Assembly (NCBI GenBank): GCA_004154925.1
Contig: QJNS01000007.1
Span: forward strand, 496,001 to 560,000
Origin: Monosporascus cannonballus
Lineage: Eukaryota > Ascomycota > Sordariomycetes > Xylariales
Direction: 5' to 3'
DNA length: 64,000 nt
The notes beneath the pieces were generated by a model that was given only the letters and a program-made list of their open reading frames with translations, made no database searches and had not been told where the DNA came from. This document shows, in pieces, positions 1 through 62,846 of this stretch. The position numbers and the translations under genes were made by a program. Positions within the stretch are counted from its first letter, which is position 1. Every line of letters starts with the position of its first letter.

Positions 1-1149
1 GAAGGTTATACGGCAATACGATATTTGTGTTAAAGTAAAGGCTCGACGACATAAGCCATACGGAAAATTATAGCTATTATTAATCGCAAAATAACTATAA
101 TATTTAATTATATTCGATTTTATTATTAAACATCGTATATTAAAAAATCCAGTTATCGGAATACATTATAACAGTATTTTCGTAATCGTCGATCGATTAA
201 CGAAATCTTCGTATTTTTTTTACCATATTACGAAGATATAAACGCTAATTAAATAATATATATTTTCTTTAAATATATTTTCAGCATATCGGGATTATTA
301 ATAAAAATTATATCTAATAAAGGATTAATATTTGCATATAAGTTTTAATAAGGCCTTATAACATAAATTAACTTAAATCATAAATTATTTAGCGTATTTA
401 AACCTTAAACAGATAAATTAATAAAACGAATAAACTAAACATTAAAAACCTATTTACGATATTATATTAATTACGAATAAAATAATTAGGTTAAGAAATT
501 ATTAATTGCTTAATTAATTTATAATATTAATTATTACGAAAGTATTAAAATAAAACCTGCAAACGTAAATTTTGATTTTAGTCCAAAGGTTTATCAGAAA
601 ATGCGCGACGAGGGTCCAATTAATATTAAAGTAATCCTTACGTTAAAGTAATTATAATAACTGTATTAAGAAATAAAGATAAAACTGGAATTCGTACGAA
701 ATCAAATAAATAAATCCTATAATTAGAAAAAATTAAAAAGATTAATTTTCGAAAAAAGGGAAATAGTTTTTTTTATTATGAAAAATATTTAAATAAAAAA
801 ACCTAATAAAAAACTCAATTTCAAATATATCGATCTATATAAAATCGCCAAGAAAATCTTAGAAAATAATTATTAATTGGAATTTTTCTTAAAAATCAAA
901 TTTTATCAAATTTTTTATGTTTTCTTATTCGAATTAATAATAAATATAATTAAAATACGAACCATATAAAACGAAATGAAAGTAAAAGACGAAATTATAT
1001 ATAAAGTGAAGAAAATCCTCGATATGTAAAAACAAAACGGATTTACCCAGTATTTAATTAAATAATAAAAGCACCCAAATTTCAAAAATACCTGGGAACC
1101 CGCCAAAAAGCTTATTAGCGCCTAACGCCTGTTAAAGAACTTTTATTAA
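1..1149 (+). pseudogene. Z pol remnant: integrase and chromodomain
   Basis: The first codons encode the end of the integrase zinc finger: Tyr (from Cys), two residues, then an intact Cys, followed by the basic tail seen in the other copies. The integrase core follows to about 900; its second catalytic Asp reads Asn near 310. A C-terminal chromodomain occupies about 1003-1107, with recognisable Y-L-I-K and N-T-W-E-P-A-K segments. Stops occur throughout, mostly TAA/TAG where Gln or Trp is expected. The frame ends at TAA 1147-1149, overlapping the antisense ORF tail to tail by 35 bp. Chromodomains of such elements bind modified histones and steer integration; this copy cannot make protein. Confidence 0.88.
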
Positions 1150-1707
1150 TAACGCCGAAATCGGCAAGGTCAAAAATTCCCTAATTAATAAACGACCAGT
1201 TTATGGATTTTAGGTTAAATTAGTCGAGAGGAAAAATAGCCTCCGCCGTTATAGCTTTAGCGGCTTTCAGCTTAACCTGTTTTTTTAACGTTCCAACTTT
1301 TTTAGTTCCTCCAAGTTGTTAATACTACGGGATATAGCTTTTATTATTTTTTCATACCATATTCTTTTCTGTTTCCAAACGTAACGAATATAAGCCTTGG
1401 CGAATTTTTCAACCTTTATGGCGGCTTTTAACTTTTTTTTAAATTTGCGATATCAAGTGGTAATTTTCTGTAATTGTTCCGGGTTGAGGCCACGAACGTT
1501 ATAATTGGCTTATTGGTAACGGACATACGAGGAATAACGAGAAAAGTTTTTTTCGGACAGTTTGTATTTAAGTTTCCGCCGTTCGCAATAAGAACAAAGT
1601 GCTATTTGACGAGGATTAGCGGATAAGACGGCAATTAATAATAAATTGCGCTGCGTAATTTTTACCTTGGAAGAAGGTTTAGCATATTTTCTGATACGAA
1701 AAGATAT
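1115..1707 (-). pseudogene. Antisense Zn2Cys6-like ORF, subtype III (Z copy)
   Basis: Reading frame opposite to pol between the chromodomain and the 3' LTR. The start is taken at 1707, where the expected ATG reads ATA, by alignment with the K copy. Cys1 (TGT, 1594-1596) and Cys2 (TGC, 1585-1587) survive, then six residues including R-R-K to a Tyr at the Cys3 position, nine residues to Tyr (Cys4), two to Tyr (Cys5) and seven to Tyr (Cys6, 1501-1503). This is the spacing of the fungal Zn(II)2Cys6 DNA-binding cluster. A Lys/Glu/Leu-rich, probably coiled-coil segment follows. The frame ends with two TAA codons at 1117-1112. Function is inferred from spacing only; the copy is dead. Confidence 0.75.
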
Positions 1708-1767
1708 TTTGGAATAAGTATTTATAAGTTAATCTTTAGGATAAAAATCTTGGGAAAGAAAATATCG

Positions 1768-2220: not shown

Positions 2221-2792
2221 ATATTTTTTAGTATATTTAAGCGTCGCTTTAGCAAATGCGAATAACGATTTATATTAATTAATTTAAATAAACTTACAAC
2301 TTTTAAGATAATATTTTATTTTTTTTATTCGGCCCGGAAACTTAATTACCAAAAAATAAACGGGGTTTTTAGTTATAAGGAATATGTTCGCCGAGGTCGT
2401 TCGTGCGATAAAATAAAAATATCTGTTTTTATAATTAATCGTTAAATTAAAAAATCGAAAAGATTAAAAGAAAAAAAACTCGAAGTCGAAAAATCCGTAT
2501 CCGAAACTTTTGCGCGTTTTTTTCCTATACGTCGTTAACGTTAATATTACTAGTCCTAGGGTGCAAAATTTATTAATCGTACTTTTTAATCTTTAAATGA
2601 TTTTAATAACCTTGCCTATTTGGAGTCAAAGTTTATGGTCGAGGTATAGGCTCTGGATAAAATGGATGTTATTAATTAGAATGCGGTGGACCAAGAGTTT
2701 CCTTCCTTAGATCATATAAATTAAAATACCATTATTTCGGGTGGTTCCGTTATTGCTGGTAAATATTTTTAATAGGCGCTGGGCGCCCATAA
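2221..2792 (+). pseudogene. Antisense Zn2Cys6-like ORF, subtype II (C copy)
   Basis: The frame runs opposite to C's own pol, hence on the plus strand. The expected ATG is ATA at 2221-2223. The cluster spans 2317-2406: TAT, two codons, TAT, six, TAC, eight, TAT, two, TAT, six, then an intact Cys codon TGC at 2404-2406. The segment between columns 5 and 6 is V-R-R-G-R-S, typical of Zn2Cys6 proteins. A Lys/Glu-rich stretch follows to about 2510. The terminal stop TAA is at 2790-2792. Length is not a multiple of three, so at least one indel is present. It resembles the G copy most closely. Confidence 0.72.
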
Positions 2793-8300: not shown

Positions 8301-9285
8301 TAAACTTTTTATATTAAAATATTTAATTATAAAAGTACATTATAATAATACTTTCGTAATTATCAAACAATATATGAAATATTATTATTTTGTAATATAA
8401 TAAGAGGATATAAAGGCCTAATAAATAATAAATATTTTTTAAAAATATTTCCAACAGAAAATTGATATTTATATTTAGGTTTTAATAAAGCCTCACAATA
8501 TTAATCGGCTTAAATTATACATTATTTAACGTTTTTCAATTTAAATAAATAAATAAATAGAAAGGATAAATTAAACTTAGACAATTTACATACGATATTA
8601 TATTAATTACGAATAAAGTAACTGGGTTAAAAATTACTTATTATATAACTAACCTATAATACCTATTAATACAAAAATATTAAGATAATATCTACAACCG
8701 CGAATTATGGTTTTATTCCAAATATTTACAAAAAGAAGACGTAACGACGGTTTAATTAATATTACAGTAATCCTTACGTTAAAATATTTACGATAATTAT
8801 ATTAAAAAATAAAACTAGAACTGAAATTTGTACGAAATTAAATAAGTAAGTATTATCATTAAAAAAACTTAAAAGGATTAATTTTTGAAAAGGGGAAAAT
8901 GGTTTTTTTTCGTTATTAAAAATATCTAAACAAAACCACCTAGTAAAAAATTCGATTTTAAGTATATTGGTGCATATAAAATCGTCAAGAAAATTTCAAA
9001 CATAATTATCAATTAGAATTTTCGCTAAAAGTTAAATTTTATCCAATTTTATATATTCTTTTATTCGAAGTAACAATAAATATTATAACAGTACATATAG
9101 CATAAAATGACGTAAAAATAACAGATAAATAGGGATATAAGGTGGAAAGAATCTTCGACATATCAAAATAAAACAGATTTACCTAATATCTAATTAAATA
9201 AAAAAAGCACCCGAACTTCCAAAATACCTGGGAACCCGCCAAAAATCTTATTAGCACCTAGCGTTTGTTAAAAAACTTTTATTAA
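5367..9285 (+). pseudogene. A pol remnant: protease, RT, RNase H, integrase, chromodomain
   Basis: Domains in order. Aspartic protease: active-site D-C-G-A intact at 5969-5980. Reverse transcriptase: active site Y-L-D-N at 7069-7080, the second Asp changed to Asn by G-to-A. RNase H: Asp at 7511 and D-Y at 7520. Integrase: about 8080-9060, zinc-finger His residues lost. Chromodomain: 9142-9240, ending W-E-P-A. The final stop TAA is at 9283-9285 and overlaps the antisense ORF by 35 bp. Internal stops are almost all TAA/TAG at Gln or Trp positions. Confidence 0.9.
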
Positions 9286-9864
9286 TACCAATAAACGCGT
9301 CTTAATTAATAATCGACCAATTAATAACCGGGATATCGGGCCGGTTGTCCGCGGCCTGCTTTAGTGTAACAGCCATAACGGCAGCCTCTAGTTATTTTTG
9401 TTCCCAACGCTTTTATTTTTCCAACTCGTCCAATAACTAAAGCTCACATTATACCATATCAACACCCTTCGAACGAACTAACGCCTTTTGCTTACGCAAA
9501 CGGAAAAAATAGGAAAAAACTTTATTCATTTTTGAAAACGACGTTAAACATTAAAATAAAGCCGTTAAAGATTTAGTAATCACTTTTTGGCGAACGCATT
9601 TTTACGCTTTAAGCGCTAATGCTTTTAACGAATATTTTCCAAAGAAAAAAGAGGTATACCGGTACCATTGCAGAACAGATCTCGATTAACATAATTTTTA
9701 CACCTTAAAACGTTTTCTATTATTTTATAACTTAGATATTTCGAAAAACGATAAAAATAAAATATAATTTCTTACCCGAATTCATTAAAGGCTTTTACGA
9801 GGTCAACACGACAAACGGTAAAGGAACGAAAAATACAACGAATCTTGGAAATACGAAACGACAT
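9251..9864 (-). pseudogene. Antisense Zn2Cys6-like ORF, subtype I (A copy)
   Basis: The ATG at 9864-9862 is intact and begins M-S-F-R-I-S-K, matching the F copy. The cluster is at the same residue numbers as in F (columns at 36, 39, 46, 55, 58, 65). Cys4 (TGT, 9702-9700) and Cys6 (TGC, 9672-9670) survive; columns 1, 3 and 5 are Tyr and column 2 is Arg. A basic helical region follows. The stop TAA at 9253-9251 lies inside the last codons of pol. About 205 codons with in-frame stops and an indel. Confidence 0.78.
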
Positions 9865-19900: not shown

Positions 19901-20850
19901 TAATTTATCAAATCTTCTTATTTTTTACTTTATTATAAGAACATAAATACCGAACACCTGGTATATATCTTTTAGATATATTTTCAGTATATACGTGTCA
20001 CTTATGGAAATAATATTAAACAAAAAATTAATACTCGTATTTCAGTTCCCGCAAGGCCTTAGGCAATGAATCGGCTTAAAATATAAATTATTTAGCGTAT
20101 TTATATTTTAAACAAATGAATAAATAAAACAAGTAAAACAAATTTTAATATCGTACTTTCGATATTATATTAATTACGAACAGAATAATTATATTAAAAA
20201 GGTTTGTGTTATTAAAGTAACTTTTAACATTAATATTTAAAAAGAATTGAAATAATATTTATATAGATTAATTTCGGTTTTACTTTAAAAATCTACACAA
20301 ACGTACGTAACGACAGTCTGGATAATATCAAAGTAATCTTTATATTAAAATGATTTAAATAATTATGTTAAAAAATAAAAACAACATTAAATTTTGTAAG
20401 AAATCAAATAATTAGTATTATGATTCGAAAAGATTAAAGAAACTAATTTTCGAAAAAAAGAAAATGGTTTTATTTGGCATAAAGAATATTTGAATAAAAC
20501 GACCTAATAAAAAAGTCGAGGTTAAATATATCGGTCTATATAAAATTGCCAAAAGAAACTTAGAAAATAATTACAAATTGGAGTTTTTACCAAAAGTTAA
20601 ATTCTACTTAATTTCTTATGTTTTCTTACTTAAATTAACGGGAAATATAACTAAAGTATATATGATGTAAGATAATATGGAGGTAAAAGACGATACGATA
20701 TACGAAGTGGAAAAGATATTCGATATCAGAAAAGAAAATAAATTTATATACTATTTAATTAAGTGGAAAAAGTATTCAGATTTCGAAAATATCTGAAAAC
20801 TCGCCAAGAATCTTAGTGGCGTTTAACGCCTGTTAAAGAATTTTCACTAG
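16926..20850 (+). pseudogene. B pol remnant
   Basis: Protease: a 63-codon open stretch at 17452-17643 carries the active-site region, but the catalytic Asp codon is TAT (Tyr) at 17531, followed by C-G-A-L-D. RT: the YxDD site near 18598-18612 reads Y-F-S-G, which G-to-A change cannot explain. RNase H near 19030 keeps the first Asp and has Asn for the second. Integrase spans about 19600-20600. The chromodomain at 20701-20817 is the best preserved of the window, with a single stop at a Trp position. The stop lies at 20848-20850. Confidence 0.88.
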
Positions 20851-21465
20851 TAACGACAGCGCTATTAGAAATAATTGCGTCTTAATTAGTATTTTCCTTA
20901 AATTAGTAGGTGTTACCGATCCCGGACCATTTTATGGGACCAGCGGAAGGAATTAATGCGGCTATAGAAGCCTCGGCGTTAGTTTGTTTTTGACGTTTTT
21001 TCTTTTTCTAACTCCTTTAATAATTGCAATTCTTTTGTAATATTTTTATTCTTTTCTAACGAAAAAAGGGTTTCTGTTTTCGGTAACAGATTAAACGAGT
21101 AATAATTTCGTTTATCTCTTATTAATAACGTTTTTAAAGCTCCAAAAAACATTCTTTTCGTAAAACTCTTTTTTGTTTTAGGGGTTGGTTCTTAACGCGA
21201 ATATTTTCTAGAGATAAAAGGAGAATGCCGGATACGTTATAGAGATATCCGCGTTTAACGCAAACCTTATATTTAAAAATGTTTTCCATTATTTTGCTTT
21301 TTAAACTCTTGGAAAAACATAAAAAATAAGACATAACTTCAAACCTAAAATAGTTAAAAATAAGAAACAGGTTCTGTCAACAAATAGTAAAAAGAAAAAC
21401 CTAACGACAACTTTTAATAATACGAATTAATATCTTAAAGAACGGCTGAATTTACGAAACGAAAT
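20813..21465 (-). pseudogene. Antisense Zn2Cys6-like ORF, subtype Ib (B copy)
   Basis: A 66-codon open stretch (21134-21334) contains the cluster: Tyr, two residues, Cys (21319-21317), six, Ser, eight, Tyr, two, Cys (21262-21260), six, Tyr. Columns 2 and 5 are retained. The middle carries the K-I-M-E-N core shared with A, F and H. The following helical segment (S-L-E-N-I-R...) is closest to the E copy. The expected start near 21465 is no longer ATG; the stop is at 20815-20813. Confidence 0.76.
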
Positions 21466-25490: not shown

Positions 25491-25877
25491 TGTGACGGCT
25501 AGGCTAATTAACCAACTATTAAACCTAAGTCGACGGGTTTATGTTGGCAGGAGTATCGTGGGATTCTGAACAATGGATACAGTATTATGTTACATCTCGT
25601 AATACCAAGGGCGTTTTGGGTAACGAACTGTTATTACAAGCTGGTATTATTTAATTATAGAAAATAATTAAGGTTATATACTTTTCTTGTTTTTACGTAC
25701 TTAATGATTATTAATTAAGTAATATTGATTATTGCGCTTAACGATACTTAACTAGATAGTTATTTAATTATGTTTAATAATTTCCGATTAAGTATTAATT
25801 ACGTAATTCGACTTATTTGGGTCTTATTTCGGTTAAGGCTAACCGTTTTTAAAACTTAAACTTGTTAAATCGTAATA
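25491..25877 (-). repeat. 3' LTR of element E
   Basis: It starts TGTGACGGC and ends CGTAATA; the adjoining CGATCCTCTTTTTT is the reverse of a polypurine tract. On the minus strand it carries AGCTTGTAATA, the presumed transcript start. Confidence 0.94.
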
Positions 25878-25943
25878 CGATCCTCTTTTTTATTAATTTT
25901 CGTTCCGAAAATTTCTTTTTTTGTAAGTATTATTTGTTTTACA

Positions 25944-26549
25944 ATATCCGGTCGTATTATTAAACCTTGTCGTTAGGATTTATTTTCGACCGTTCGTTAT
26001 TAGGACTTTTTTTTTATCTTTGAAAAATTTAATTTTGAAATTATATCGTACACCTTATACTTTTTTAAGGAATAAAAATATAAAATAATAAAAAACGTTT
26101 CCAAATATAAGGCTTACGTAAAACGTAATTCCCCTTATGACGGGAACGGCGTTCTGCTTTTTTCGTTGGAAAATATTCGCGCCGAAAACCAGCGGCTCGA
26201 ACGTAAAAAGACGTTCGCCAAAAAACGTTTTCTTAAGCTTTAAAAACGTTATTAACAAAAAATAAACAAAATTATTATTCGTTTAATCCGTTTACGTAAG
26301 CAAAAGGCTTTTTTTCGTTTTAAAGGTATAAAAATGGTTTAACGGGAACTTTAGTCCCTGGAAAAGCTGGAAAAGCAAAAGTATTAAAAGTAAGTTTCCA
26401 TGGAAGCTTTTGCCGTCGCTTTGTCCCTACCTTTTGAATCCTTTAATTGGTTTGCCTTTTCCGCGTTCGAGGTTATTAACTGGGATACCGTTATCGCCGG
26501 CGTTCCCGACGTTATTAGTAAAAATTCTTTAATAGGCGCTAGGTACTAA
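25944..26549 (+). pseudogene. Antisense Zn2Cys6-like ORF, subtype Ib (E copy, frame kept)
   Basis: The best copy for the overall gene plan: 606 bp, exactly 202 codons in one frame from ATA (decayed ATG, 25944) to TAA (26547-26549), with about nine internal stops. The cluster spans 26049-26138 with all six Cys columns as TAC/TAT in exact spacing 2-6-8-2-6. Residues about 70-135 are rich in Lys, Arg, Glu and Leu, likely a coiled coil. The last 47 codons are open, with aromatic and acidic residues. The stop overlaps pol by 35 bp. The product was probably a small nuclear DNA-binding protein; function is inferred. Confidence 0.8.
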
Positions 26550-29500
26550 TAAGATTTTTGGCGGGTTCCCAGGTATTTTCGGAATTTAGGTACTTTTTTT
26601 ATTTAATTAGATATTAGGTAAATCCGTTTTATTTCCGCATATCGAAAATTTTTTCCACCTTATATGCCTTTTCGTTTTTTATTTTTACGTTATCCTATAC
26701 CGTACGTACTTTGATTATATTTGCTATTAACTTAAATAAGGAAATATAAAAAATTAAATAGAATTTAACTTTTGATAAAAATTCTAATTAATAATTATTT
26801 TCTGAAATTTTCTTAACGATTTTATATAAACCGATATATTTGAAATCGATTTTTTTGCTAAGTTTTTTTATTTGAATGTTTTTAGTAACGAGATAAATTA
26901 TTTTTCTCTTTTCGAAAATTAATTTTTTTAACTTTTTTTGGTTATAATATTTACTTATTTAGTTCCGTACAAATTCTAATTCTATTTTTATTTCCTAATA
27001 TAATTATCGTAATTATTTTAACGTAAAAATTATTTTAATATTAATTAAACCGTCGTTATGCGTTTTTTTGTAAATTTTTGGAATAAACCCAAAATTCGCG
27101 TTAACTGGTATTATCTTAATATTTTCGTAATAATTAATATTATAAACTAATTAAATAATAAATAACTTTTTAACCTAATTATTTTGTTCGTAATTAACGT
27201 AATATCGTAAATATATTTCCAATATTTAGTTTAGTTATTTTATTTATTTTTCTATTTATAATTTAAATATATTAAATAATTTATGGTTTAAGCCGATTTA
27301 TGCCATAAGGCCTTATTAAAATTTAAATACGAATATCGAACCTTTATTCGAAATAATTTTTACTAATAATCCATATATGTTAAAAATATATTTGAAGAAA
27401 ATATATGCTATTTATTTTACGTCCGTATCCTTATAATATGGTAAAAAGTAAGAAAATTTCGTGAACCGATCGACGATAACGAAAATGTTATCGTAATGTA
27501 TTTTTGTTATTAAATCCTTTAATATAGGAAGTTTAATAATAAAATCGAATATAATTAAATACTATAATTACTTTATAACTAATAATAATTATAATTCTCC
27601 GTATGGTTTATATTATCGGGCCTTTATTTTAATACAAACGTTATATTGTTATATAACCTTTTATACCGTTAATTTTATTTTAGGAAAAAAATATGTACGT
27701 TAAAGCCGTTTTAAAATTTTATGGATCTTTAGACATCCATATAACTGATATTTATATATATTTCGTATTAAGTTTTTTTAATATTTTTTTGGAACTTATA
27801 TTTTATTTATTTTTTAATTTTTTGGAAAATTATTATTATATTATTAAATTTTCTGGTATATATCAAAAGATATTACCCGAATTATTATAATTTATCGTAA
27901 GCGTAAATATCCTTTTATGGTAATATCGAAAATTATGTAATTAATTTTAACTAACTTTTTTTCGAAATTTGGTTATTTACTTAGGGCGTCTGCTTTGCCG
28001 TTTTCTAAACCTTTTTTATAAATAATAACGAAGTCGAAGTTCGCCAACTTTATTATATATCGTAATTATCGTCCTATAAGTTTTTTAGTGATAATAAAGC
28101 CGGTAAAATTTTGATAATTTGTATAAATCTTAACTTAATATAAATTTCCCTTTAGGAAATGCTTAAATTCGCGGAACGCCATAATAATAACTATAAATTC
28201 TTTATTTGGAATGCTATAATTAAGTTCGGCTCCTTTTAATTTATATAAAAAGAACGTAATAAAGTACAATTTGCTTTAATTATCTGGCTATCCGATTATT
28301 ACGCCTAACATATAATCCGAAAAATCGGTTTTTAATTCCATAGGGCGTATTAGGTCGTATATAATTAATACTAGCTTATTGGTAATCGCATTTTTAATTT
28401 CTTAAAACGCTTTTTCCGCTTTTAACGTTTATATAAATTTTTTTTCTTTTTTAGTAAAATTAATTAGGGGCATAATTATTTTGCTAAAATTTCGGATAAA
28501 CTTCTTATAATAATTGGCGAATCCAAAAAATGCCTATATTTCCTTAACTATTATTAGTATTTGCTATTTTGTAATAACAGCGATTTTCTTAAAATCCATC
28601 CTAATATATCCTAAGGTAATAATATGTCCCAGATATTCCATTTCTTATTTATGGAACTAATTTTTCTTTATATTAACCAATAGTTTAACATTTTGCAAAA
28701 CTTAAAGGACTTTATGAACGTATTTTGCATATATTTTTTTATTTCCGAAAAAATAAGAATATTATCGAAATAGCACATAATAAAAACGTTAAGGTATTCC
28801 CGTAATACATAATTTACCATTTGCTGGAAAGTTACTAATACGTTCGTAAATCCTATTAGCATAATCAAATACTTAAATAATCCGTATTTTATTTTAAAAG
28901 TTATTTTTTATTCGTATTATTTCTTAATTTTAATAAAGTTATATTTATTTCTAAGATCGAATGTTATAAACTATTTAGTTCTATAAAATCGGTTTTTTAT
29001 TTTTGTAATTAAGGGCAATAACGTTTAATCCTTAATGGTAATTTCGTTTAGCTATCGGTAATTAACTATAAGTCGTAATTTTCCATTTTTCTTAGGTACG
29101 AAAAATATAAGATATTTTGCCGGTAACTTTAAAGGTTAAATTTATCCTTTTTGTAACCGATTTTCTAGGTATTCCCGGAAAATATGCAATTCGTTTTCGT
29201 TAAGGTTATAAATAAGGTAAAATTTCGTAATTTTATTCGTTATGTTTTAGTAATTTCGTATCCAGTTTCTTTTTAAAAAGTTACTTATATTTATAATATT
29301 ATGATAACATATTAATTAAATTTTTTAATTTTTAAAGCTATTATTTTAAATTGTTATTTAATTACCGTAATTTTACTTTAATAATAATAACAATATATCA
29401 TATTTTTCTTTAATACTTATTCTTTTTTTTATATTTTATTCCCTTAGGTAATAAAGTATTTATCATATCTTTATGCCTATATTCGTTATTATTTTCGATT

Positions 29501-30462
29501 AAATATTAAGATCTCGTTTTTTTTAAATTTTGCTTATTGATACAATATAAAGCGAATTTTACTTAGCTAATCCCTCCGTTAATTAAGGCCTTATACTGGT
29601 ATATCTATGGTTTTCTTAAGATTATATCGTAATTCTTAAATAAAACGATATCGAAATTAACCGTTTAATATCATTTTTTAATAAAAATTTCGAGGTAATT
29701 AATTTCATATTAAATTTTTCCGTTATCGTAAGCGAAATCCTGACTTTCGGCGTTTATTATTATGTAAGGTTTTAACTTATATTTCTATAATAATTTAAAT
29801 TTATTAATTACGTTTGGTATAATATAATTTTCACCTAAAGTTCCGTAATTTATTATTATAATATATTAATACGTTCCGATTTGTACATCTAAAGTAATAA
29901 GGTTATTAACGGCTTTTATCGTTACGTTTAAAACCTTTTTTAAAAATTTATTCTAATTTCTTTAGGTTTCGTTATCCTGCGGCTTTTTTATAAGTAACTT
30001 TTATTTTTTAACTCCTTTTCGAATTTGTCAAACTTTATTTATATTTTTTTATATAACGCGTTAAGTTATTATATTTATTGTTCTTATCGGCGTATTATGT
30101 CTTCGAATTATATTAGTTATTTTTAATTTTATTAGATTTTTTTTCCCACTGGGTAAATTATTCTTTAATATGGCGTATAATTTCCTATTAAGCCTTATTT
30201 CCTTTTTACTAAAGGTTTCGTATAAATCGTTAAATTTTTTCCTTTAAAGCTTATCGTTTATCAGGATTTATAATAAATACTAGTTGAAAATAAAGGTCTA
30301 TAATAACTTTCTGGTAATACTTTTTTACAATATGCTAGATTAATTTCTTTTCCGTTTAATGGTTATACCACTTATAATGACAAAAAGGGTTTTCCTGCAG
30401 ATATTATTTTCCTTTAAGCTAGTTTTTTATTATTACTAATTAAAGAAAATCGTTTTTAAATG
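26515..30462 (-). pseudogene. E pol remnant
   Basis: Minus-strand gene with stop at 26517-26515. Chromodomain about 26545-26680, integrase to about 27700, RNase H about 28000-28420. RT: the open stretch 28668-28868 carries the palm segment with Y-F-D-N at 28772-28761 (second Asp now Asn), followed by I-L-I-F-S. The protease region lies near 29860. Stops of TAA/TAG type are frequent elsewhere. Confidence 0.9.
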
Positions 30463-31915
30463 TTATAAATCGAAAATATTAATATTATTATTTATCGTTT
30501 TTGTTTTTTTTCATTTTATTAGGAAAATCGAATTTTTTATAATATATACGGGTAATCCTATTATAAATATGCCATTTTTATTTTTCGTAAATAAGGTAAT
30601 TTTATCTTTTATAATAAATAATATATATCCTGCCGTATCGATTAAAAGTTCCGGAATAAACTTTTTTTATCTAGCCTTAATATTCCTTTAATTATTCTTT
30701 AAAAATATTCCGTTATTCCTTAATTATTTATTAAGTTAGATTTTTGGCTTTTTGCATTCTTTATTAAAGTTTTTGCTACGGTAAGCTTGGCATATACTTA
30801 AGCCAAATTATATTAATAGATTTTTCGTTTTTCTGATTTTTCTTGGGTTATCCTTCGGATATAGGTTTCTAATTATTTTGTCATAATTTTTTGGGTAAAA
30901 GGCATTTATAAGCCTTATGCCCCTTTTTTCCGCAATTATAATATTCGATCTGGTTCCAATCCTTCTTATGGGTAACTCCTAACTCCATAAGGCCTGTCTT
31001 AATATTATAAGAAGTATTGTTACGCCGAAAAACGTTAATATTAGCCGTATATCGGGGTTTGTTATCGTTTTTTTTTTAATTCTTTTGGTATGCCAGGTAT
31101 ATTGCCGGTTATTAATTTTAATTATTATGGCGATATAATCCGACAAATAATTAGGCCGGTTAAATTTAAAAAGTTTTTTTTATATTTCTTTTTTTAAGTT
31201 ATCGAAAAATTTAGCCATTAATATTTTTTGTCCTTAATTTAACTTAAATATTAACTAAATCAATACGTTACCGTATTTAAATACCGATCTTTTTTATCGT
31301 AATTATTAAATTTGCATTTCGGCTTTTATTTTTTCGTTTATTATTCCGAAAACCTTTATTAACGTTTATTTAAATTATTCGTAATCGTTATATATTTATA
31401 TTATTTCCGGATTGCGTTTTTCGATTAGCAAAATAACGTATTTTTTTATAACCGGCTTAAACCAAATAATTACGTTTCCGGTAAATCGTTTAACCGCGAA
31501 CTTAATTCGTATAATAAACGTAATAAATCGAATAAAAAAATACCCGAAATATGTTCGGTATTAAATTAAAAATAATTATAATTTAATCGAAATTTTATTA
31601 AAAAATTTTGGCTTAAAGGATTTAAGGATTTTTCTTAATTCCTTGGTAAAATTTAACTAAATAACTTAATTCGACCGAAAAAACTTTCTAGTTTTAGGAA
31701 TCTTTTTTTTTTCCTTAAATTTCTTATAGGCGGCTTAAAGGGACGTCGTAAGGTCGTTTTTGTTTTATTCCAGCTAAAGGATACGTTTATTTATAACGTC
31801 CAGATGTCGAAAAACTTCTTTTCGAAAAAGACGAAATTGCTTTTTTTTTTCTCGGATTTTATTCCGGTATTAAGGTCCTTAAGGACTTAGTAAATAAGCT
31901 ATTTAAGCTACTTGC
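30463..31915 (-). pseudogene. E gag remnant
   Basis: It ends F-D-L-stop at 30465-30463. The zinc knuckle at 30902-30943 is nearly complete: Tyr for Cys1, then N-C-G-K-K-G-H-K-A-Y-K-C, so Cys2, His and Cys4 are intact. This form is shared with the K copy and differs from the N-K-I-G-H form of A, B and H. The N-terminus is broken. Confidence 0.84.
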
Positions 31916-31981
31916 TAATAAATATAATATCGGCGGTATTACTTAAAGTTTAACGGTATTACTAAATAAAAACTTATAACG

Positions 31982-32368
31982 TATAACGGCTAAGCTAATT
32001 AACCAATTATTAAACCTAAATTAACGGGTTTATATTAATAAAAATATCGTAGGATTTTAAATAATAAATATAATATTATATTACGTTTCGTAATATTAAA
32101 AACGTTTTGGGTAACGAATTATTATTACAAACTAATATTATTTAATTATAAAAAATAATTAAAGTTATATATTTTTCTTATTTTTACGTACTTAATAATT
32201 ATTAATTAAATAGTATTAATTACTATGTTTAACGATACTTAATTGGGCAATTGCTTAATTATGCTTAATAACTTCCAACTAAGCATTAATTACGTGACTC
32301 GACTTACTTAGGTCTTATTTCGGTCAAGGCTAACCATTTTCAAGACCTGAGCCTGTCAGGTCGTAACA
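31982..32368 (-). repeat. 5' LTR of element E
   Basis: 387 bp, the same length as its partner. On the minus strand it is followed by CGTTATAAGTTTTT, the counterpart of the candidate self-primer site, and it is flanked by ATATT at 32369-32373. Confidence 0.94.
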
Positions 32369-33495: not shown

Positions 33496-35863
33496 AATAT
33501 AAGTATTCGGTTATACCAATAGGATTTACGATTGTATTAGCAACTTTTTAGCGAATAATAAATTATGTATTATAAAAATACTTTAATAATTTTATCGTTT
33601 ATTATTTTGATAATATTTTTATTTTTTCGGAAATAAAAAAATATACGTAAAATATATTTATAAAGTTTTTTAAGTTTTATAAAATGTAAAGTTATTTGTT
33701 AACGTAAAAAAAGGTTAATTTTATATATAGGAAATAGAATATTTGGAATGTATTATTACCTTAAGATATATCAGAATAAACCTTAAAAAAATCGCTGCCA
33801 TTATAAAATGGCAAACGTTAACGATAATAAAAAAGTAATAGTTATTCCTTAAATTTGCTAATTATTACAGAAAGTTTATTCGAAATTTTAATAGGATAAC
33901 TATATCCCTAATAAATTTTTTAAAGAAAAAAAAGAATTTAAATAAATGCCAGATACGGAAAAAATATTTTAGAATATTAACGATGTAATTATTAACGAAT
34001 TAATATTAATTATGTACGATTTAAACTGCTTTATTAAATTAGAAACCGATATTTCGGATTATGCGTTAAACGTAATAATCGGATAACGAAATAATTAAAG
34101 TAAATTGTACCTTATTATATTTTTTTCGTACAAATTAAAACGAGCTAAATTTAATTACGGTATTCCAAATAAGGAATTTATGGCTCTTATTATGGCATTT
34201 CGAAAATTTAGATATTTTTAAAAAGGAAATTTGTATTAGGTCAAGGTTTATACGGATTATTAAAATTTTACCAGTTTTATTACGATTAAGGAATTTATAA
34301 AACGATAATTTCGTTATGCGAAAAAATTGATAAATTTCGATTTCGTTATTATTTATAAGAAAGGTTTAAAGAACGATAAAGCAAATGCTTTAAGTAAACG
34401 ACCAAATTTCGAAAAGAAATTAGTTAAAATTAGTTATATAATTTTTGATATTATTACAAAAAGATATTTACGCTTACGAGAAATTACGACAATTTGGGCA
34501 GTACCTAATAACAGATATTAAAAAAAATCTAATAATGTAATAGTAATTTTTTAAAAAACCAGAAAACGGATAAAATATAAGTTCCAGAAAAATACCAAAA
34601 GGATTTAGTACGAAGAATATACAAATATTAATTATATGGATATTTAGAGATTTATAAAACGTTAAAAAGATTTTAATATATATATTTCTTTTTAAAATGA
34701 AATTAACAATATAGAAAATTATACGATAATACGATATTTGCGTTAAAGCAAAAACTTAACGACATAAACCATACGGAAAATTATAATTATTATTAGTCGC
34801 AAAACGACCGTAATATTTAATTATATTTAATTTTATTATTAAATTTTTTATGTTAAAAAATCCAATTACGGGAATAAATTACCATAATATTTTCGTAATT
34901 GTTAACCGATTTACAAAATTCTTTTATTTTTTATTATATTACGAGGATATAAACGCCGAACAAATAATTTATATTTTCTTTAAAAACATTTTCAATATAT
35001 ACGGATGATTAATAGAAATTATTTCAAATAAAGAATCGATATTGACATCTAAGTTTTGGTAAAGCCTAATAATATAAATTAGCTTAAATTACCAATTATT
35101 TAACGTATTTAAACCTTAAATTAATAAATAAATAAAACGAATAAATTAAATTTTAAAAACTTACTTACGACATTATATTAATTGTAAATAAAATAATTAG
35201 GTTAAAAAATTTTTAATTATGTAATTAACTTATAATACCAGTTATTACGAAAGTATTAAGATAATATTTATAAACGTAAATTTTGGTTTTATTTTAGAAA
35301 TTTACAAAAAATTGCGTAATAACGGTTTAATAAATATTAAAATAATTCTTACGTTAAAACAATTGTAACAATTATAATAAAAAATAAAAATAAAATTAGA
35401 ATTGGTATGGAATTAAATAAATAAGTATTACGATTAAAAAAGGTTAAAAGGATTAATTTTCGAAAAAGGGGAAATGGTTTTCCTGATTATAAAAAATATT
35501 TAAATAAAACGATTTAACAAAAAACTTAATTTTAAATATATCGGTTTATACATAATCGCTAAAAGAATCTTAGAAAATAATTATTAATTAAAATTCTTAT
35601 TAAAAGTTAAATTCCGTTTAATTTTTGATATTTTTTTATGTAAGTTAACAGCAAATATAATTAAGGTATATACAGTATAAGACGAAATGAAAGTGGAAGA
35701 TAAAAAGGTATATAAGGTAGAGAAAATCCTCGATATACGAAAATAAGACGAATTTACTTAATATTTAATTAAATAAAAGAAATACCTAAATTCCGAGAAT
35801 ACCTAGGAACCTGCCAAAAACTTTATTAACGCCTAGCGCTTATTAAAAGGTTTTTACCAGTAA
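33496..35863 (+). pseudogene. F pol remnant: RT (part), RNase H, integrase, chromodomain
   Basis: RT active site Y-F-D-N at 33603-33614. RNase H has both Asp residues (T-D at 34045-34050, then S-D-Y-A-L) and a 64-codon open tail at 34327-34521. Integrase follows to about 35600. The chromodomain at 35717-35823 carries N-S-E-N-T before a stop at the Trp position. The gene ends TAA at 35861-35863. Confidence 0.86.
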
Positions 35864-36444
35864 TAACGAACGTATCCAAATTAATAATTAACGAGTTAAT
35901 AACCGGAATATCGGGCTAATTGATTAGGGCTTATATTAATATAATAGCTGTAATGGCGGCCTTTAATTATTCTTATTTTTGATACTTTTGTTTTTTTTAG
36001 TTCGTTTAACGATTAAAGTTTATATTGTATTATGGTAACGCCTTTCGAACGAATTAACGCCTTTTATTTACGTAAACGAATAAAACGAAAAAAAGCTTTA
36101 TGTATTTTTTCTTAATATTTGCGTTAAACCTCGAAACAAAGCCGTTAAAATTTTAATAATTACTTTTCGGTAAGCGCTTTTTCGCGTTCCAAACGTTAAT
36201 ATTTATAATAAATATTTTGTAAAGAAGAAATAGGTACGCCGGTACCATTATAGGATCGATTTCGATTAATATATTCCTTATATCTTAAAATGTTTTCCAT
36301 TATTTTATACCTTATGTTTTTCGAAAAATAATAAAAGTAAAATATAATTTCGTAACTAAATTCGTTAAAAGCTTTTATAAGGTTAGTACGACAAACGGTA
36401 AAAAAACGAGGAACGTAACGAATTTTGAAAATGCGTGACGACAT
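35826..36444 (-). pseudogene. Antisense Zn2Cys6-like ORF, subtype I (F copy)
   Basis: It retains its ATG (36444-36442) and the first 82 codons are open, the longest intact N-terminus of this gene in the window. It begins M-S-S-R-I. Numbered from this Met, residues 36, 39, 46, 55, 58 and 65 are all Tyr, exactly the six columns of a Zn2Cys6 cluster. Arg/Lys/Asn lie between columns 2-3 and 5-6, as in DNA-contacting loops of that fold. The stop lies inside pol at 35828-35826. Confidence 0.8.
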
Positions 36445-39900: not shown

Positions 39901-40894
39901 ACTTTTTATTTTAATAATTCCAATTAGAAAAATATATTATAACAGCATTTTCGTAATCATTAATTTATTAACAAAGTTTTTTATTATTTACTATATCATA
40001 AAGATATAAACGCCAAACAAGTAATATATGTTTTTTAATTATATTTTTAATATATCCGAATTATTAATAAAATATATTTTAAATAAAGGATCGATAATCG
40101 TATTTAAATTTTGGCAAAGCTTAATAATATAAATTAACATAAATCATAAATTATTTAACGCATTTAAACTTTAAACTGATAGATAAACGTCACGAACGAA
40201 TTAAAATTTGAAAGTTTATTTATACTATTATATTAATTACGGATGAAATAGTTAAGTTAAGAAATTATTTGTCACATAATTCGCTTATAATACTAATTAT
40301 TATAAAAGCATTAAAATAATATTTACGAACGCAAATTTTGGTTTTACTCCAGACATTTCCAAAAAAAATACGCGATAACGGTTCGATTAATATTAAAATA
40401 ATTTTTACGTTAAAATAATTATAACAGTTACATTAAAAAATAAAAACGGAAATGGAATTCGTATATAACCAAATAAACAAATACTATAACTAAAAAAGTT
40501 AAAAGGATTAATTTTCCTTATTATCAAAAACATTTATATAAAACTACCAAATAAAAATGTCGATTTCAAATATAACGGTCCATATAAAATCGCTAAAAAA
40601 TTCTTAGGAGATAATTACTAATTAAAACTTGTACTAAAACTCAAATTCTATCCAATTTTATATATTTCTTTATTCGAATAAGCAGCAAATATAATCAAAG
40701 TTCATACGGCGTAAAATAATATCGAAATAAAAAATAAATAAGCAAACGAAATAGAAAAAATATTCGATATTCGAAAACAAAATGGATTTACCTAATACCT
40801 AATTAAATGGAAAAAGTACCCGGATTTCGAAAATACTTAAAAATTTGCCAAAAATCTTATTGGCGCTTAACGCCTGTTAAAAAACTTTTATTAA
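36908..40894 (+). pseudogene. G gag end and pol remnant
   Basis: gag ends F-D-L-stop at 36964-36966. In the protease near 37580 the active site reads N-Y-G-T (Asp to Asn, Cys to Tyr). RT active site is Y-L-D-N at 38668-38679. RNase H near 39110 keeps T-D-I-S-D. Integrase is about 39660-40680. The chromodomain at 40748-40852 is well preserved, with two stops and an intact W-K-K-Y-P-D-F-E-N-T. The stop is at 40892-40894. Confidence 0.88.
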
Positions 40895-41431
40895 TAACGA
40901 CCGAAGCACCCGAAAAAATAGTATTCCAATCCATAAGATCTATGGAAGGAAATCCTTGTTCCATTATAATTTAATTAATAACGTCCACCCTATTCAAGGC
41001 CTGTATTTCGACCACAAATTCTAATTCCAACTGTACAAAATTGTTAAAACTATCTAAAGATTAAAAGGATACGATTAATAAGTTTCGCACCTTGGAAATA
41101 ATGATATTGGCGCTAACGACGTATACGAAAAAAACGTACAAAGGTTTCGGCTAAAGATTTTTCGGCCGCTTATTTTTCTTTTTTTAATCTTTTCGACTTT
41201 GCGATATGACGATTAATTATAAAAACAGGGATTCCTATCCCGTTATACGAACGGCCCCGAGGGACATATTTTTTATAACGAGAAACCCCGTCCCTCATTT
41301 GGCAATTCAGCTGCCGAAAAAAACAAAAGAAATCAAAGTATTATGTTAAAACCTTCGAATATAATTAAATTAGCTCAGGGAAATCGCTATTCGGATTTGC
41401 GGGAACGACGTTTGGATATACCGGAAAACAT
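40857..41431 (-). pseudogene. Antisense Zn2Cys6-like ORF, subtype II (G copy)
   Basis: The ATG at 41431-41429 is retained. In the cluster, Cys2 (TGT, 41325-41323) and Cys3 (TGC, 41304-41302) survive with six residues between them; eight residues lead to Tyr (col 4), two to Tyr (5), then V-P-R-G-R-S to Tyr (6). Column 1 is Asp, which RIP does not explain. A V-F-I-I-N-R segment after the cluster is shared only with the C copy. A frameshift lies between the start and the cluster. Stop at 40859-40857. Confidence 0.74.
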
Positions 41432-42017: not shown

Positions 42018-42634
42018 ATATCGTCCCGTATTTCCAAGACTTATCGGGTTTTTCGTCCTTTCACAATTCGTTGTATTAATTTCATAAAAGTCTTTAACGA
42101 ATTTGGATACGAAATTATTATTTATTTTTATTGTTTTTCGAAAAATCTATATTATAAAATAATGGAAAACGTTTTAAAATATACAAAATCCATTAATCGA
42201 AGTTGGTTTTGCGATAATACCGGTATGTCGCTTTTTTTTGACAAAATATTCGCTATAAATATTAACGTTTAAAACGCAAAAAAAACGTTTGCCGAAAAAC
42301 GATTATTAAAGTTTTAACGATTTTATTTTAAGGCTTAACATCGTTATCCAAAAAAATAAAGAAAGTTTTTGCCCATTTTATTTGTTTACGAAACCAAAAG
42401 GTGTTGGTTCGTTCTAAAGGCGTTACCATAATATAATATGGGCTTTAATTATTAAACGAATTAAAAAAGCAGGAACGTCAAAAATAGGAATAGTTGAAAG
42501 CCGCTGTTACGGCTGTTATATTAGTATAGGCCGTAGCCGATTGGCCCGATATCTCGACTATTAATTTATTAACCGTTAATTGGGATGCGCCCGTTATTAT
42601 TAGTAAAAGTTCTTTAATAGGCGTTAGGCGTTAA
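42018..42634 (+). pseudogene. Antisense Zn2Cys6-like ORF, subtype I (H copy)
   Basis: The expected ATG is ATA at 42018-42020, followed by S-S-R-I-S-K as in F and A. Cys2 (TGT, 42132-42134) and Cys6 (TGC, 42210-42212) survive, 26 codons apart as the cluster demands. Columns 1, 3 and 4 are Tyr; column 5 is Ser. The K-I-M-E-N core is intact. Stop TAA at 42632-42634. One indel breaks the frame downstream. Confidence 0.78.
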
Positions 42635-57500: not shown

Positions 57501-58484
57501 TATTATAACAGCATTTTTGTTATCGTCGATCGATTTACGAAATTTTCTTACTTTTTACTATATTATAAGGATACTAATGCGGAATAAATAGTATATATTT
57601 TTTTCAAAAATATTTTTAGTACATACGGATTGCCATATAAAATTATTTTAAATAAAAAAACGATATTTATTTTAAAATTTTGGCAAGGCCTTATAACATA
57701 AATCGGCCTAAATTATAAGTTATTTAACGTATTTAGACCCTAAATAAATAAATAGATAAAACGGCTAAACCAATTATTAAAAGCATATTTACGATATTAT
57801 ATCAATTATAAACAAAATAATTAAGTTAAGAAATTATCTGTTACCTAATTAACTTATAATACTAATTATTACGAAAATATCAAAATAATACCAATTAACG
57901 TAAATTTTGGATTTATTTCAAAAGTTTATAAAAAAGTACGCGATAACGGTCCAATTAATATTAAAATAATTTTTACATTAAAATAATTATAATAATTATA
58001 TTAAAAAATAAAAATAAAATTAAAATTTGTACGGAATTAAATAAGCAAATATTATAACGAAAAAAAGTTAAAAGGATTAATTTTCGAAAAAGGGAAAATA
58101 ATTTACCTTATTACTAAAAACATCCAAACAAAAAGATTTAACAAAAAACTTGATTTTAAGTATATCGGTTTATATAAAATTATTAAAAAAATCTTAAAAA
58201 ATAATTATTAATTGGAATTTTTATTAAAAGTTAAATTTTATCCAATTTTTTACGTTTTTTTATTCGAATTAATAACAGATATAATTAAGGTACAAACGGC
58301 ATAAAATAATATAAAAATAAAAAACGAATAAATATATAAAATGAAAAAAATTTTCGACATACGGAAATAAGATGGATTTACTTAATATCTAATTAAATGG
58401 AAAAAGCACCCGGATTCCGAAAATACCTGGGAACTTATTAAAAACTTTATTAATACTTAACGCCTATTAAAGAACTTTTACTAA
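54507..58484 (+). pseudogene. K pol remnant
   Basis: The protease active site near 55119 reads N-Y-G (mutated). The RT active site Y-F-D-D at 56226-56237 is intact, the only copy here with both Asp residues, followed by I-L-I-F-S-E. RNase H near 56670 has T-D-I-S-D-Y. Integrase is about 57230-58280. The chromodomain at 58338-58453 has two stops and N-T-W-E. The stop TAA is at 58482-58484, 35 bp past the antisense stop. Many Gln/Trp-site stops still kill the gene. Confidence 0.92.
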
Positions 58485-59043
58485 TAACGTCGAAAACGGC
58501 AAAATCGAAAGCCCCTTAATTAATAATTAATTAATCGGTAAGCTTAATGCTGGACCAATTAAAAGGAATAACAGGCGGCGTTAACGTAACTTCCGCGGCC
58601 TTTATCCGTTTTTTACGTTTTAATTCGTCCAGCTCCTTTAAGTTATCGATATTACGAAATATAACCTTTATTATTTTATTATATCACATTTTTTTCTATT
58701 TACGCAAATAACGCAAACGGGCGTTAATTTCCGAAATAACCCGATCGGCCTCCTTTTTAATAACCTCTAATTCTAACTTAAATTTTCGGTATTAAGCAAC
58801 AATACGTTATAACTGCTTTAGGTTTAAACCCCGCATATCATAATTGGATTAGTTATTTTTAATACAGGACGAATAACGAGAAAAATCGTCCTCCAATAAT
58901 TTACATTTTAATTTCCTTCGTTCATAGTAAAAATAAAGCGCTATATCCACAGGATTTACAGAAAATACTGCGGCCACTAAAAAGTTACGTTAAACGGTTT
59001 TCGCCTTAAAAAAAGGTTTAGCATATTTCTTAATATAACCCAT
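58450..59043 (-). pseudogene. Antisense Zn2Cys6-like ORF, subtype III (K copy, frame kept)
   Basis: 594 bp, exactly 198 codons from an intact ATG (59043-59041; M-G-Y-I-K-K-Y-A-K-P) to TAA (58452-58450). In the cluster, columns 1 and 2 are Tyr, then E-R-R-K-L-K, Cys3 kept (TGT, 58905-58903), nine residues, Tyr (4), two, Cys5 kept (TGT, 58866-58864), seven, Tyr (6). It matches the Z copy closely. A charged helical segment follows. Several RIP-type stops occur. Confidence 0.8.
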
Positions 59044-62301: not shown

Positions 62302-62846
62302 CGCCGAAAACGGCAAAGTCAAAAATCTCCTAATTAATGGATAAGTAATTGGTAAACTCCAAATTAGATTATTCGAAAGGAAAAGCGGCCTTTGCCGATA
62401 TGGCCTTAACGACCTTTAATTCGGCCTGTCTTTTTCGACGTTTCAATTTATCCAATTGTTTAAAGGACCGAAGCCTACGAAATAATATATGTATTATACG
62501 GTCGGCCCATAATCTTTTTTGTTTTTGAAAACGACGAATTTTGGCCTATATTTATTCCGTTTCCTTTTTGGCTTTTTTAAATTCCGTTTTAACCTTAAAG
62601 TAATTAAAAATAGGTTTTTCGAATTAAGAAATGGAAAAACCGTTAACGTTATAAAGGCCTTAATTCCGCATTACGTATTTTTGTACCTAGAAAAATCCGA
62701 CAAAAAAACATAATAATATAATAACTTATAACGAACATAATAAAAATATATAAATATATTTATAATTCGAGAAATGATTAATTTAAGTAAGTTATTTTGT
62801 TTTTCTTATTTTTTTTATTAATTAATTTTTTAATATGACCCGATAT
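62264..62846 (-). pseudogene. Antisense ORF remnant (J copy), cluster unclear
   Basis: Same position and ends as the other copies: decayed ATG (ATA) near 62846, then S-G-H-I-K-K like the Z/K subtype, stop at 62266-62264. A D-F-S-R-Y piece matches the Cys4 neighbourhood of Z and K, and the helical tail is basic. The cysteine spacing is disturbed by indels. Confidence 0.5.

What the first reader, a model, noticed from the sequence alone, without database searches (positions are those of the whole stretch)
25944..26549. Chromovirus carries an antisense gene with Zn(II)2Cys6 cluster spacing
A second gene lies opposite gag-pol between the chromodomain and the 3' LTR, about 198-206 codons long. Nine copies (cluster regions in Z 1501-1596, C 2317-2406, A near 9672-9770, B near 21240-21328, E 26049-26138, F near 36250-36340, G near 41240-41335, H 42123-42212, K near 58840-58935) keep the order 2-6-8or9-2-6or7 residues between six Cys/Tyr columns, with basic residues between columns 2-3 and 5-6 and a charged helical segment after. 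That is the spacing of the fungal binuclear zinc cluster. I recall no standard description of a Ty3/gypsy element with such a gene, although similar small proteins occur in fungal genome annotations.
Basis: partly seen in the sequence, partly recalled or inferred. Interest (0 to 1): 0.88.

Follow-up and report, generated by a model that had tools for sequence, protein, structure and literature searches.

The report
Backwards zinc-cluster gene in fungal retrotransposons
Chromodomain retrotransposons of this fungus carry, on the strand opposite their replication genes, a second gene that natural selection kept working and that probably encodes a small zinc-cluster, coiled-coil DNA-binding protein; a backwards gene in this position is already known from a Botrytis element, and whether that one has the zinc cluster is not known here.

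Summary
Element E (25491-32368; TSD ATATT) is a Ty3/gypsy chromovirus with gag-pol on the minus strand. On the plus strand, tail to tail with the chromodomain, lies a 202-codon gene (25944-26552) whose start is 67 bp from the 3' LTR edge. RIP wrecked it here, but 30 of 30 genome loci read with flanks have the chromodomain opposite it, and 38 of 40 sampled further chromodomain places carry it antisense. On a transversion-only tree of 70 copies, inner branches change mainly at codon position 3 (61/53/159) and tips do not (90/93/103): it was selected as a protein while the element moved. Six columns are at least 97% Cys/Tyr, spaced 2-6-8-2-6; a second lineage repeats this, with all six Cys in one copy. 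Pfam Zn_clus matched no scanned copy, that one included; simulated RIP also erases true Zn_clus domains from a local profile. Profile similarity is weak, though in register. The antisense gene as such is not new: Boty of Botrytis has brtn (Zhao 2011, seen only as cited). Best reading: a self-encoded Gal4-like C6 zinc-cluster/coiled-coil regulator expressed from the 3' LTR. Gene very likely, zinc module likely, regulatory role inferred.

The parts
25491..32368 (-). Element E, full-length Ty3/gypsy chromovirus, gag-pol on minus strand, RIP-degraded
   Evidence: LTR pair and target-site duplication ATATT on both sides; Pfam domains
25491..25877 (-). 3' LTR of E
   Evidence: 387 bp; 75 transitions and 0 transversions to the 5' LTR
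31982..32368 (-). 5' LTR of E
25944..26552 (+). Antisense gene (start codon column, ATA in E; conserved stop column 26550-26552); 9 in-frame stops before that in E
26049..26138 (+). Six-column Cys/Tyr cluster, residues 36-65, spacing 2-6-8-2-6 (all six Tyr in E itself)
26157..26426 (+). Charged helical (coiled-coil-like) segment, about residues 72-161
   Evidence: AlphaFold2: helices with block pLDDT 78-93 over residues 81-170 of the second-lineage model; 71-87 over residues 61-130 of the E-lineage model
26518..26664 (-). Chromodomain at the 3' end of pol, overlapping the 3' end of the antisense gene
   Evidence: Pfam Chromo E 4e-11; overlap of match ends 23-26 nt in 29 of 30 loci
27616..27795 (-). 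Integrase H2C2 zinc-binding domain
   Evidence: Pfam E 4.8e-5, 23.8 bits, below the curated cut-off of 25.5
28210..28422 (-). RNase H domain
   Evidence: Pfam RT_RNaseH_2 E 1.3e-12
28656..29099 (-). Reverse transcriptase
   Evidence: Pfam RVT_1 E 4.3e-14
1121..1721 (-). Antisense-gene copy Z (weak C-terminal match; cluster read by eye in another frame)
2284..2769 (+). Copy C
9257..9861 (-). Copy A (two pieces)
20822..21424 (-). Copy B
35832..36441 (-). Copy F (two pieces)
40866..41331 (-). Copy G (two pieces)
42021..42628 (+). Copy H (two pieces)
58456..59022 (-). Copy K
62270..62578 (-).

Best explanation
The chromoviruses of this fungus encode, antisense to gag-pol and expressed presumably from a promoter in or next to the 3' LTR, a protein of about 200 residues with an N-terminal six-cysteine zinc module of Zn(II)2Cys6 spacing, a coiled coil, and a tail rich in Trp and Asp, that is, a miniature Gal4-like protein. 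It most likely binds DNA as a dimer and regulates the element itself (LTR transcription or choice of integration site). Shown: gene, orientation, presence in nearly all sampled chromodomain elements, selection, cysteine pattern. Inferred: zinc and DNA binding, dimer, promoter, target, regulatory role. My odds: protein-coding gene 0.95; binuclear-type zinc module 0.75; regulation of the element 0.4.
For: Defined ends: ATG/ATA start column in 66 of 67, stop column in 64 of 67. 534 of 551 in-frame stops (97%) sit in columns where at least 3 copies keep a RIP-source codon, against 63-83% in the five other frames. Transversion-only tree of 70 copies: inner branches 61/53/159 at codon positions 1/2/3, tips 90/93/103, Fisher p 1.4e-7; second lineage, 20 copies, 20/12/42 against 19/14/18. 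The chromodomain control shows the same in small numbers, 7/5/16 inner against 8/9/8 tip. Chromodomain on the opposite strand in 30 of 30 loci, 16 of 16 pairs within 1 kb (one of them not tail to tail), 38 of 40 sampled further chromodomain places and 20 of 20 second-lineage loci. Six Cys/Tyr columns in 95 rows, each at least 98%; all six Cys in one copy of lineage 2; all six in register with eight host Zn_clus domains in hhalign. 48 host Zn_clus domains fall from a median of 49.7 to 0.5 bits against an HMM built from those same 48 when saturating RIP is simulated on them, so silence of RIPped copies in Pfam is expected by analogy. Helices after the cluster.
Against: Pfam Zn_clus never rings, not even for the copy with six Cys. 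First profile comparison gave nothing; later ones E 0.019 with hhalign probability 2.5% and E about 0.06, probability 0.9%, with 7 of 200 column shuffles as good. RIP-matched HMM: 0 of 200 column shuffles reach the observed mean, 1 of 200 the median, 8 of 200 the maximum, and no copy reaches 10 bits. The Arg after C2 and the Pro before C4 that are invariant in eight host domains are missing in E's lineage and in L126. AlphaFold2 gives no confident fold for the cluster (block pLDDT 29-39) and draws strands there. No relative among 5.8 billion proteins or in viral contigs, though I do not know how many fungal sequences these hold. The 70-copy tree is weakly supported (27 of 69 inner nodes at UFBoot 80 or more). 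No expression or binding data.
Confidence: 0.6

Rival explanations
1. The gene's main effect is through its RNA: convergent transcription that overlaps the end of pol makes double-stranded RNA and limits the element (or feeds silencing); the protein is secondary.
For: Tail-to-tail arrangement with overlapping match ends in 29 of 30 loci and a 146-nt overlap of frames in L119. Such a role is discussed for plant antisense ORFs (PMC7264820, passages).
Against: Selection acted on codon positions of the protein frame, not just on transcription.
Confidence: 0.15
2. The protein is an RNA-binding or export accessory factor (Rev-like) whose six cysteines form a different zinc fold.
For: Weak Zn_clus scores; accessory proteins of LTR elements include an export factor, CERV of Cer1 (PMC10309623, title and start of abstract in a search listing).
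Against: Spacing 2-6-8-2-6 with a following long helix is that of Zn(II)2Cys6 proteins (recalled) and unlikely by chance.
Confidence: 0.2
3. A captured host Zn(II)2Cys6 gene fragment riding as passenger in one amplified family.
For: The host genome has at least 111 Zn_clus matches.
Against: Present in at least three diverged lineages, in 38 of 40 sampled chromodomain places, and selected on inner branches; the family HMM gives no match above its inclusion threshold in the eight best host Zn_clus loci.
Confidence: 0.03
4. Not a gene: a chance open frame or antisense shadow of pol or of the LTR.
For: All 150 scored copies have in-frame stops. The frame holds 7.9 stops per copy, not far below the 9.3 of the quietest other frame.
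Against: Start and stop columns, RIP origin of the stops, and codon-position signal on inner branches; a stop-free copy exists in another lineage.
Confidence: 0.02

Closest known systems
brtn of Boty / BcGypsy1 (Botrytis cinerea, Sclerotinia sclerotiorum; Zhao et al. 2011, Virology 417:248; paper not held, seen only as cited in PMC7264820, PMC8365987, PMC4227169 and named in PMC5987419)
   Same: Additional gene antisense to gag-pol between pol and 3' LTR of a fungal element (PMC7264820) whose gag-pol has a CHROMO domain (PMC4227169); a Monilinia transcript matches both truncated Pol and BRTN (PMC5987419).
   Different: Whether BRTN has the six cysteines is unknown to me; no BRTN sequence could be fetched, so orthology is likely but untested.
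Antisense aORF-3R of plant LTR elements (Grande gene23, RIRE2, Retand TRP28)
   Different: Other protein families (TRP28 domain in Retand); Retand is a non-chromovirus lineage with a pol-3'LTR region of 2.9-6.6 kb, against about 0.64 kb in E.
Fungal Zn(II)2Cys6 (Gal4-type) transcription factors, Pfam PF00172
   Same: Cysteine spacing; cluster followed by helical, coiled-coil-like segment.
   Different: No Pfam match; lacks the Arg and Pro invariant in eight host domains; few basic residues between C2 and C3 in E's lineage (more in Z and K, ERRKLK); element-encoded; only about 200 residues.
HTLV-1 HBZ (named in PMC11963269; details recalled)
   Same: Antisense gene near the 3' LTR of a retroelement encoding a nuclear regulator.
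   Different: bZIP protein (recalled), unrelated; works like, not a member.

Membership tests
Zn(II)2Cys6 binuclear cluster (PF00172) | Six cysteines, C-x2-C-x6-C-x(5-12)-C-x2-C-x(6-9)-C (ranges recalled) | tested here: met
   Six Cys/Tyr columns 2-6-8-2-6 in 70 copies, all six Cys in one lineage-2 copy, 95 rows
Zn(II)2Cys6 binuclear cluster (PF00172) | Match above Pfam's curated score | tested here: not met
   No Zn_clus row; one search suggests that RIP erases the match of true members, but this does not cover the six-Cys copy L126
Zn(II)2Cys6 binuclear cluster (PF00172) | Profile similarity in register with bona fide members | tested here: inconclusive
   Nothing; register correct with E 0.019 and about 0.06 with 7 of 200 shuffles as good; shuffle tests favourable
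Zn(II)2Cys6 binuclear cluster (PF00172) | Basic residues between C2 and C3, Pro before C4 | tested here: inconclusive
   Two Lys in E's lineage, ERRKLK in Z and K, few in lineage 2; no Pro before C4 in the rows that I read; Arg and Pro are invariant in 8 of 8 host domains
Zn(II)2Cys6 binuclear cluster (PF00172) | Binds two zinc ions and DNA | not testable with these tools
   AlphaFold2 cluster region not confident
Ty3/gypsy chromovirus | RT - RNase H - integrase - chromodomain order between LTRs | tested here: met
   (integrase H2C2 below curated cut-off; RT in another frame than the rest)
[quoted passage not shown]
   3' LTR itself located for E only
BRTN of Boty | Sequence homology to BRTN | not testable with these tools
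   Paper not held, sequence not available; protein searches found no relative

The most novel reading that the evidence does not exclude
A whole group of fungal chromoviruses carries its own Gal4-type transcription factor, encoded backwards from the 3' LTR, that binds the LTRs of the family as a dimer and switches the element on or off (or steers chromodomain-integrase), so that a host-type regulator class works as a retroelement regulator.
Probability: 0.3. Interest if true: 0.85.

Novelty: new variant of a known kind. Interest (0 to 1): 0.58.

Why it matters
The function of antisense genes in LTR elements is called unknown in both reviews seen in passages (PMC7264820 of 2020, which also says that no clear similarity to other proteins had been described; PMC11963269 of 2025, which adds a possibly DNA-binding TRP28 domain in plants). 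A conserved zinc-cluster/coiled-coil architecture gives a concrete, testable biochemical guess for the fungal ones: purify, add zinc, find the DNA site. It also shows that past selection on a gene can be read from copies destroyed by RIP by using transversions and inner branches only.

Tried and rejected
Direct Pfam scans of read-through copies gave only scattered weak names (DUF5125 in 6 of 29 members, best E 0.0034; others), taken as chance. Protein searches with P0001, A1 and A3 found nothing, the last at E up to 10. PDB profile searches gave nothing or nothing sensible. Viral contigs gave nothing. The first profile comparison failed. The upstream pol pieces up1 and up2 were poorly aligned controls (0.5-2.9 changes per codon); they do not show the strong position-3 excess (up2 70 of 182 inner, 171 of 444 tip; up1 45 of 97 inner, 149 of 377 tip), and I do not rely on them. 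On the 30-locus tree of the same call the antisense gene had a position-3 excess on tips too (36/30/70; inner 11/9/52), which I ascribe to sparse sampling (long tips); the 70-copy tree does not show it. Structure models: mean pLDDT 60.4 and 61.0, cluster not resolved, so no fold search was run. Ten paper searches and one survey of fungal LTR elements searched for terms (PMC3248453) named no zinc-cluster gene in a retrotransposon; I saw listings, titles and starts of abstracts, not all papers counted.

Full report
What the window is. It has no ORF of 120 codons, GC of 14-33%, and dinucleotide ratios (TA/AT 1.09, (CA+TG)/(AC+GT) 0.62) in the range that I recall as typical of RIP: repeated LTR elements destroyed by C-to-T change.

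Element E. Two 387-bp LTRs at 25491-25877 and 31982-32368 are flanked by the duplication ATATT; they differ by 75 transitions and no transversion, so the difference looks like RIP on a young insertion. Read in pieces on the minus strand the interior gives RVT_1 (4.3e-14), RNase H (1.3e-12), Integrase_H2C2 (4.8e-5, under the cut-off) and Chromo (4e-11) in that order, RT in another frame than the rest. E is therefore a Ty3/gypsy chromovirus on the minus strand, and the gene at issue lies opposite, between chromodomain and 3' LTR.

The antisense gene is real. A search of the genome with E's read-through copy scored 150 of 2328 candidates; all 150 match at E 3.2e-32 or better and all have in-frame stops. 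I used 70 of these 150: the 30 that came with loci and 40 more chosen from the list; 80 were not fetched. In 67 copies whose match reaches the start, the first codon is ATG (33), its RIP product ATA (33) or ACG (1); in 67 whose match reaches the end, the same column is a stop in 64. In this frame 534 of 551 stops fall in columns where at least 3 copies keep CAA, CAG, CGA, TGG or CGG; in the other five frames the share is 63-83%. The count of stops alone is less telling: 7.9 per copy against 9.3-16.9.

It was under selection. RIP makes transitions only, so I coded purine/pyrimidine, built a tree from that alone, and counted changes by codon position with parsimony. Inner branches: 61, 53, 159; tips: 90, 93, 103 (Fisher p 1.4e-7; 27 of 69 inner nodes have UFBoot 80 or more). 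The amino-acid sequence was protected while copies were being made, and drifted after insertion. A second lineage of 20 copies gives 20, 12, 42 against 19, 14, 18. By arithmetic the wobble position of one minus-strand frame coincides with this one, but in that frame 37% of stops are not explained by RIP. The chromodomain itself shows the same in small numbers; two further pol pieces were badly aligned and showed no clear signal.

It belongs to the chromoviruses as a group. In 30 of 30 loci the chromodomain is on the opposite strand, the match ends overlapping by 23-26 nt in 29 of them. Among the 150 best chromodomains and 150 best gene copies, 16 pairs lie within 1 kb and 16 of 16 are opposite; 13 overlap by 3-29 nt tail to tail, two are 101 and 153 nt apart, and one lies the other way round. 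Of the 134 chromodomains without a listed partner I took every third until I had 40: 38 have the gene on the opposite strand at E up to 1e-3, the weakest at 6.5e-4; L122 and L140 do not. Searches with two diverged members, L126 and L119, each filled the 150-place limit again (of 1348 and 1025 candidates; the lists share some places at their ends), so I count at least three lineages. One L119-lineage copy has a stop-free frame of 220 codons (177 from its first ATG), with Tyr at the first two cluster columns, overlapping the chromodomain frame by 146 nt; a second stop-free place is only a partial match.

The cysteines. In 70 copies six columns are at least 97% Cys or Tyr and contain Cys: residues 36 (4 Cys, 66 Tyr), 39 (38, 32), 46 (36, 32), 55 (20, 49), 58 (12, 57), 65 (25, 45). 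No single copy of these 70 keeps more than four Cys. Six random columns of 199 would fall in the Zn2Cys6 spacing, as I recall its ranges, with probability 6.7e-8. Lineage 2, with otherwise different letters, has the same six columns at 2-6-8-2-6, with 15, 14, 14, 13, 12 and 8 Cys in 21 rows (two rows are one place), and all six in one place, L126. Over 95 rows (70 + 20 + Z, K, G, L119, L120) each column is at least 98% Cys/Tyr.

Is it Zn_clus? By Pfam, no: no member scanned and 96 matches PF00172. That silence means little for RIPped copies: 48 host Zn_clus domains, scored with an HMM built from these same 48, fall from a median of 49.7 bits to 0.5 when saturating RIP is simulated on them. It means more for L126, which has all six Cys and still does not match. 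With a profile of host domains put through the same RIP, no copy reaches 10 bits, but the family mean beats 200 of 200 column shuffles, the median 199 and the maximum 192. Direct profile alignment gave nothing at first, then the six Cys in register at E 0.019, probability 2.5%, and E about 0.06, probability 0.9%, where 7 of 200 shuffles did as well. Single copies L126, L120 and L119 score 5.1, 6.6 and 4.0 bits and beat 1000, 999 and 997 of 1000 shuffles of their own residues. The Arg after C2 and Pro before C4, invariant in eight host domains, are missing. I conclude: same cysteine frame and probably the same kind of cluster, but not a member by Pfam's rule.

Rest of the protein. AlphaFold2 on lineage 2 draws long helices at 72-101 and 127-174, block pLDDT 78-93 over residues 81-170, and leaves the cluster unresolved; E's lineage gives the same picture less clearly. 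The tail is rich in Trp and Asp in lineage 2; that it could be an activation region is my inference.

Mechanism. The start codon of E's gene is 67 bp from the 3' LTR edge, so its transcript must begin in or beside that LTR, reading backwards; this is inferred. A zinc cluster plus coiled coil points to a dimeric DNA binder; the natural targets are the LTRs or the sites of insertion. The convergent overlap could also make double-stranded RNA, a rival or added role.

What is known. [quoted passage not shown] PMC8365987, PMC4227169, PMC5987419, passages). The Boty gag-pol has a CHROMO domain. Zhao 2011 itself is not held. So the arrangement is known. I found no paper that gives such a gene a zinc cluster (searches: open-licence PMC only, listings seen), but BRTN may well be the same gene and may have been so described. 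From memory, similar small proteins are annotated in many ascomycetes; no call shows it.

Verdict. Observation confirmed and strengthened; interpretation partly supported; new variant of a known kind. On checking I set the odds of the zinc module to 0.75, since host-invariant residues are missing.

Noticed in passing
   Followed up: partly
L119 (G000:C132:111892-113341): A copy of a third lineage with stop-free antisense frame overlapping an open chromodomain frame by 146 nt.
   Followed up: partly
L122 and L140: The 2 of 40 sampled chromodomain places without a significant antisense gene; L122 shows a similar-looking frame below threshold.
   Followed up: no
window 25491-25877 and 31982-32368: LTR pair differs by 75 transitions and 0 transversions: RIP-only divergence, useful for dating.
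   Followed up: yes
window 28210-29099 (-): RT of element E reads in another frame than RNase H, integrase and chromodomain.
   Followed up: no
A1 members: Weak Pfam DUF5125 matches (best E 0.0034) in 6 of 29 copies; no explanation.
   Followed up: no
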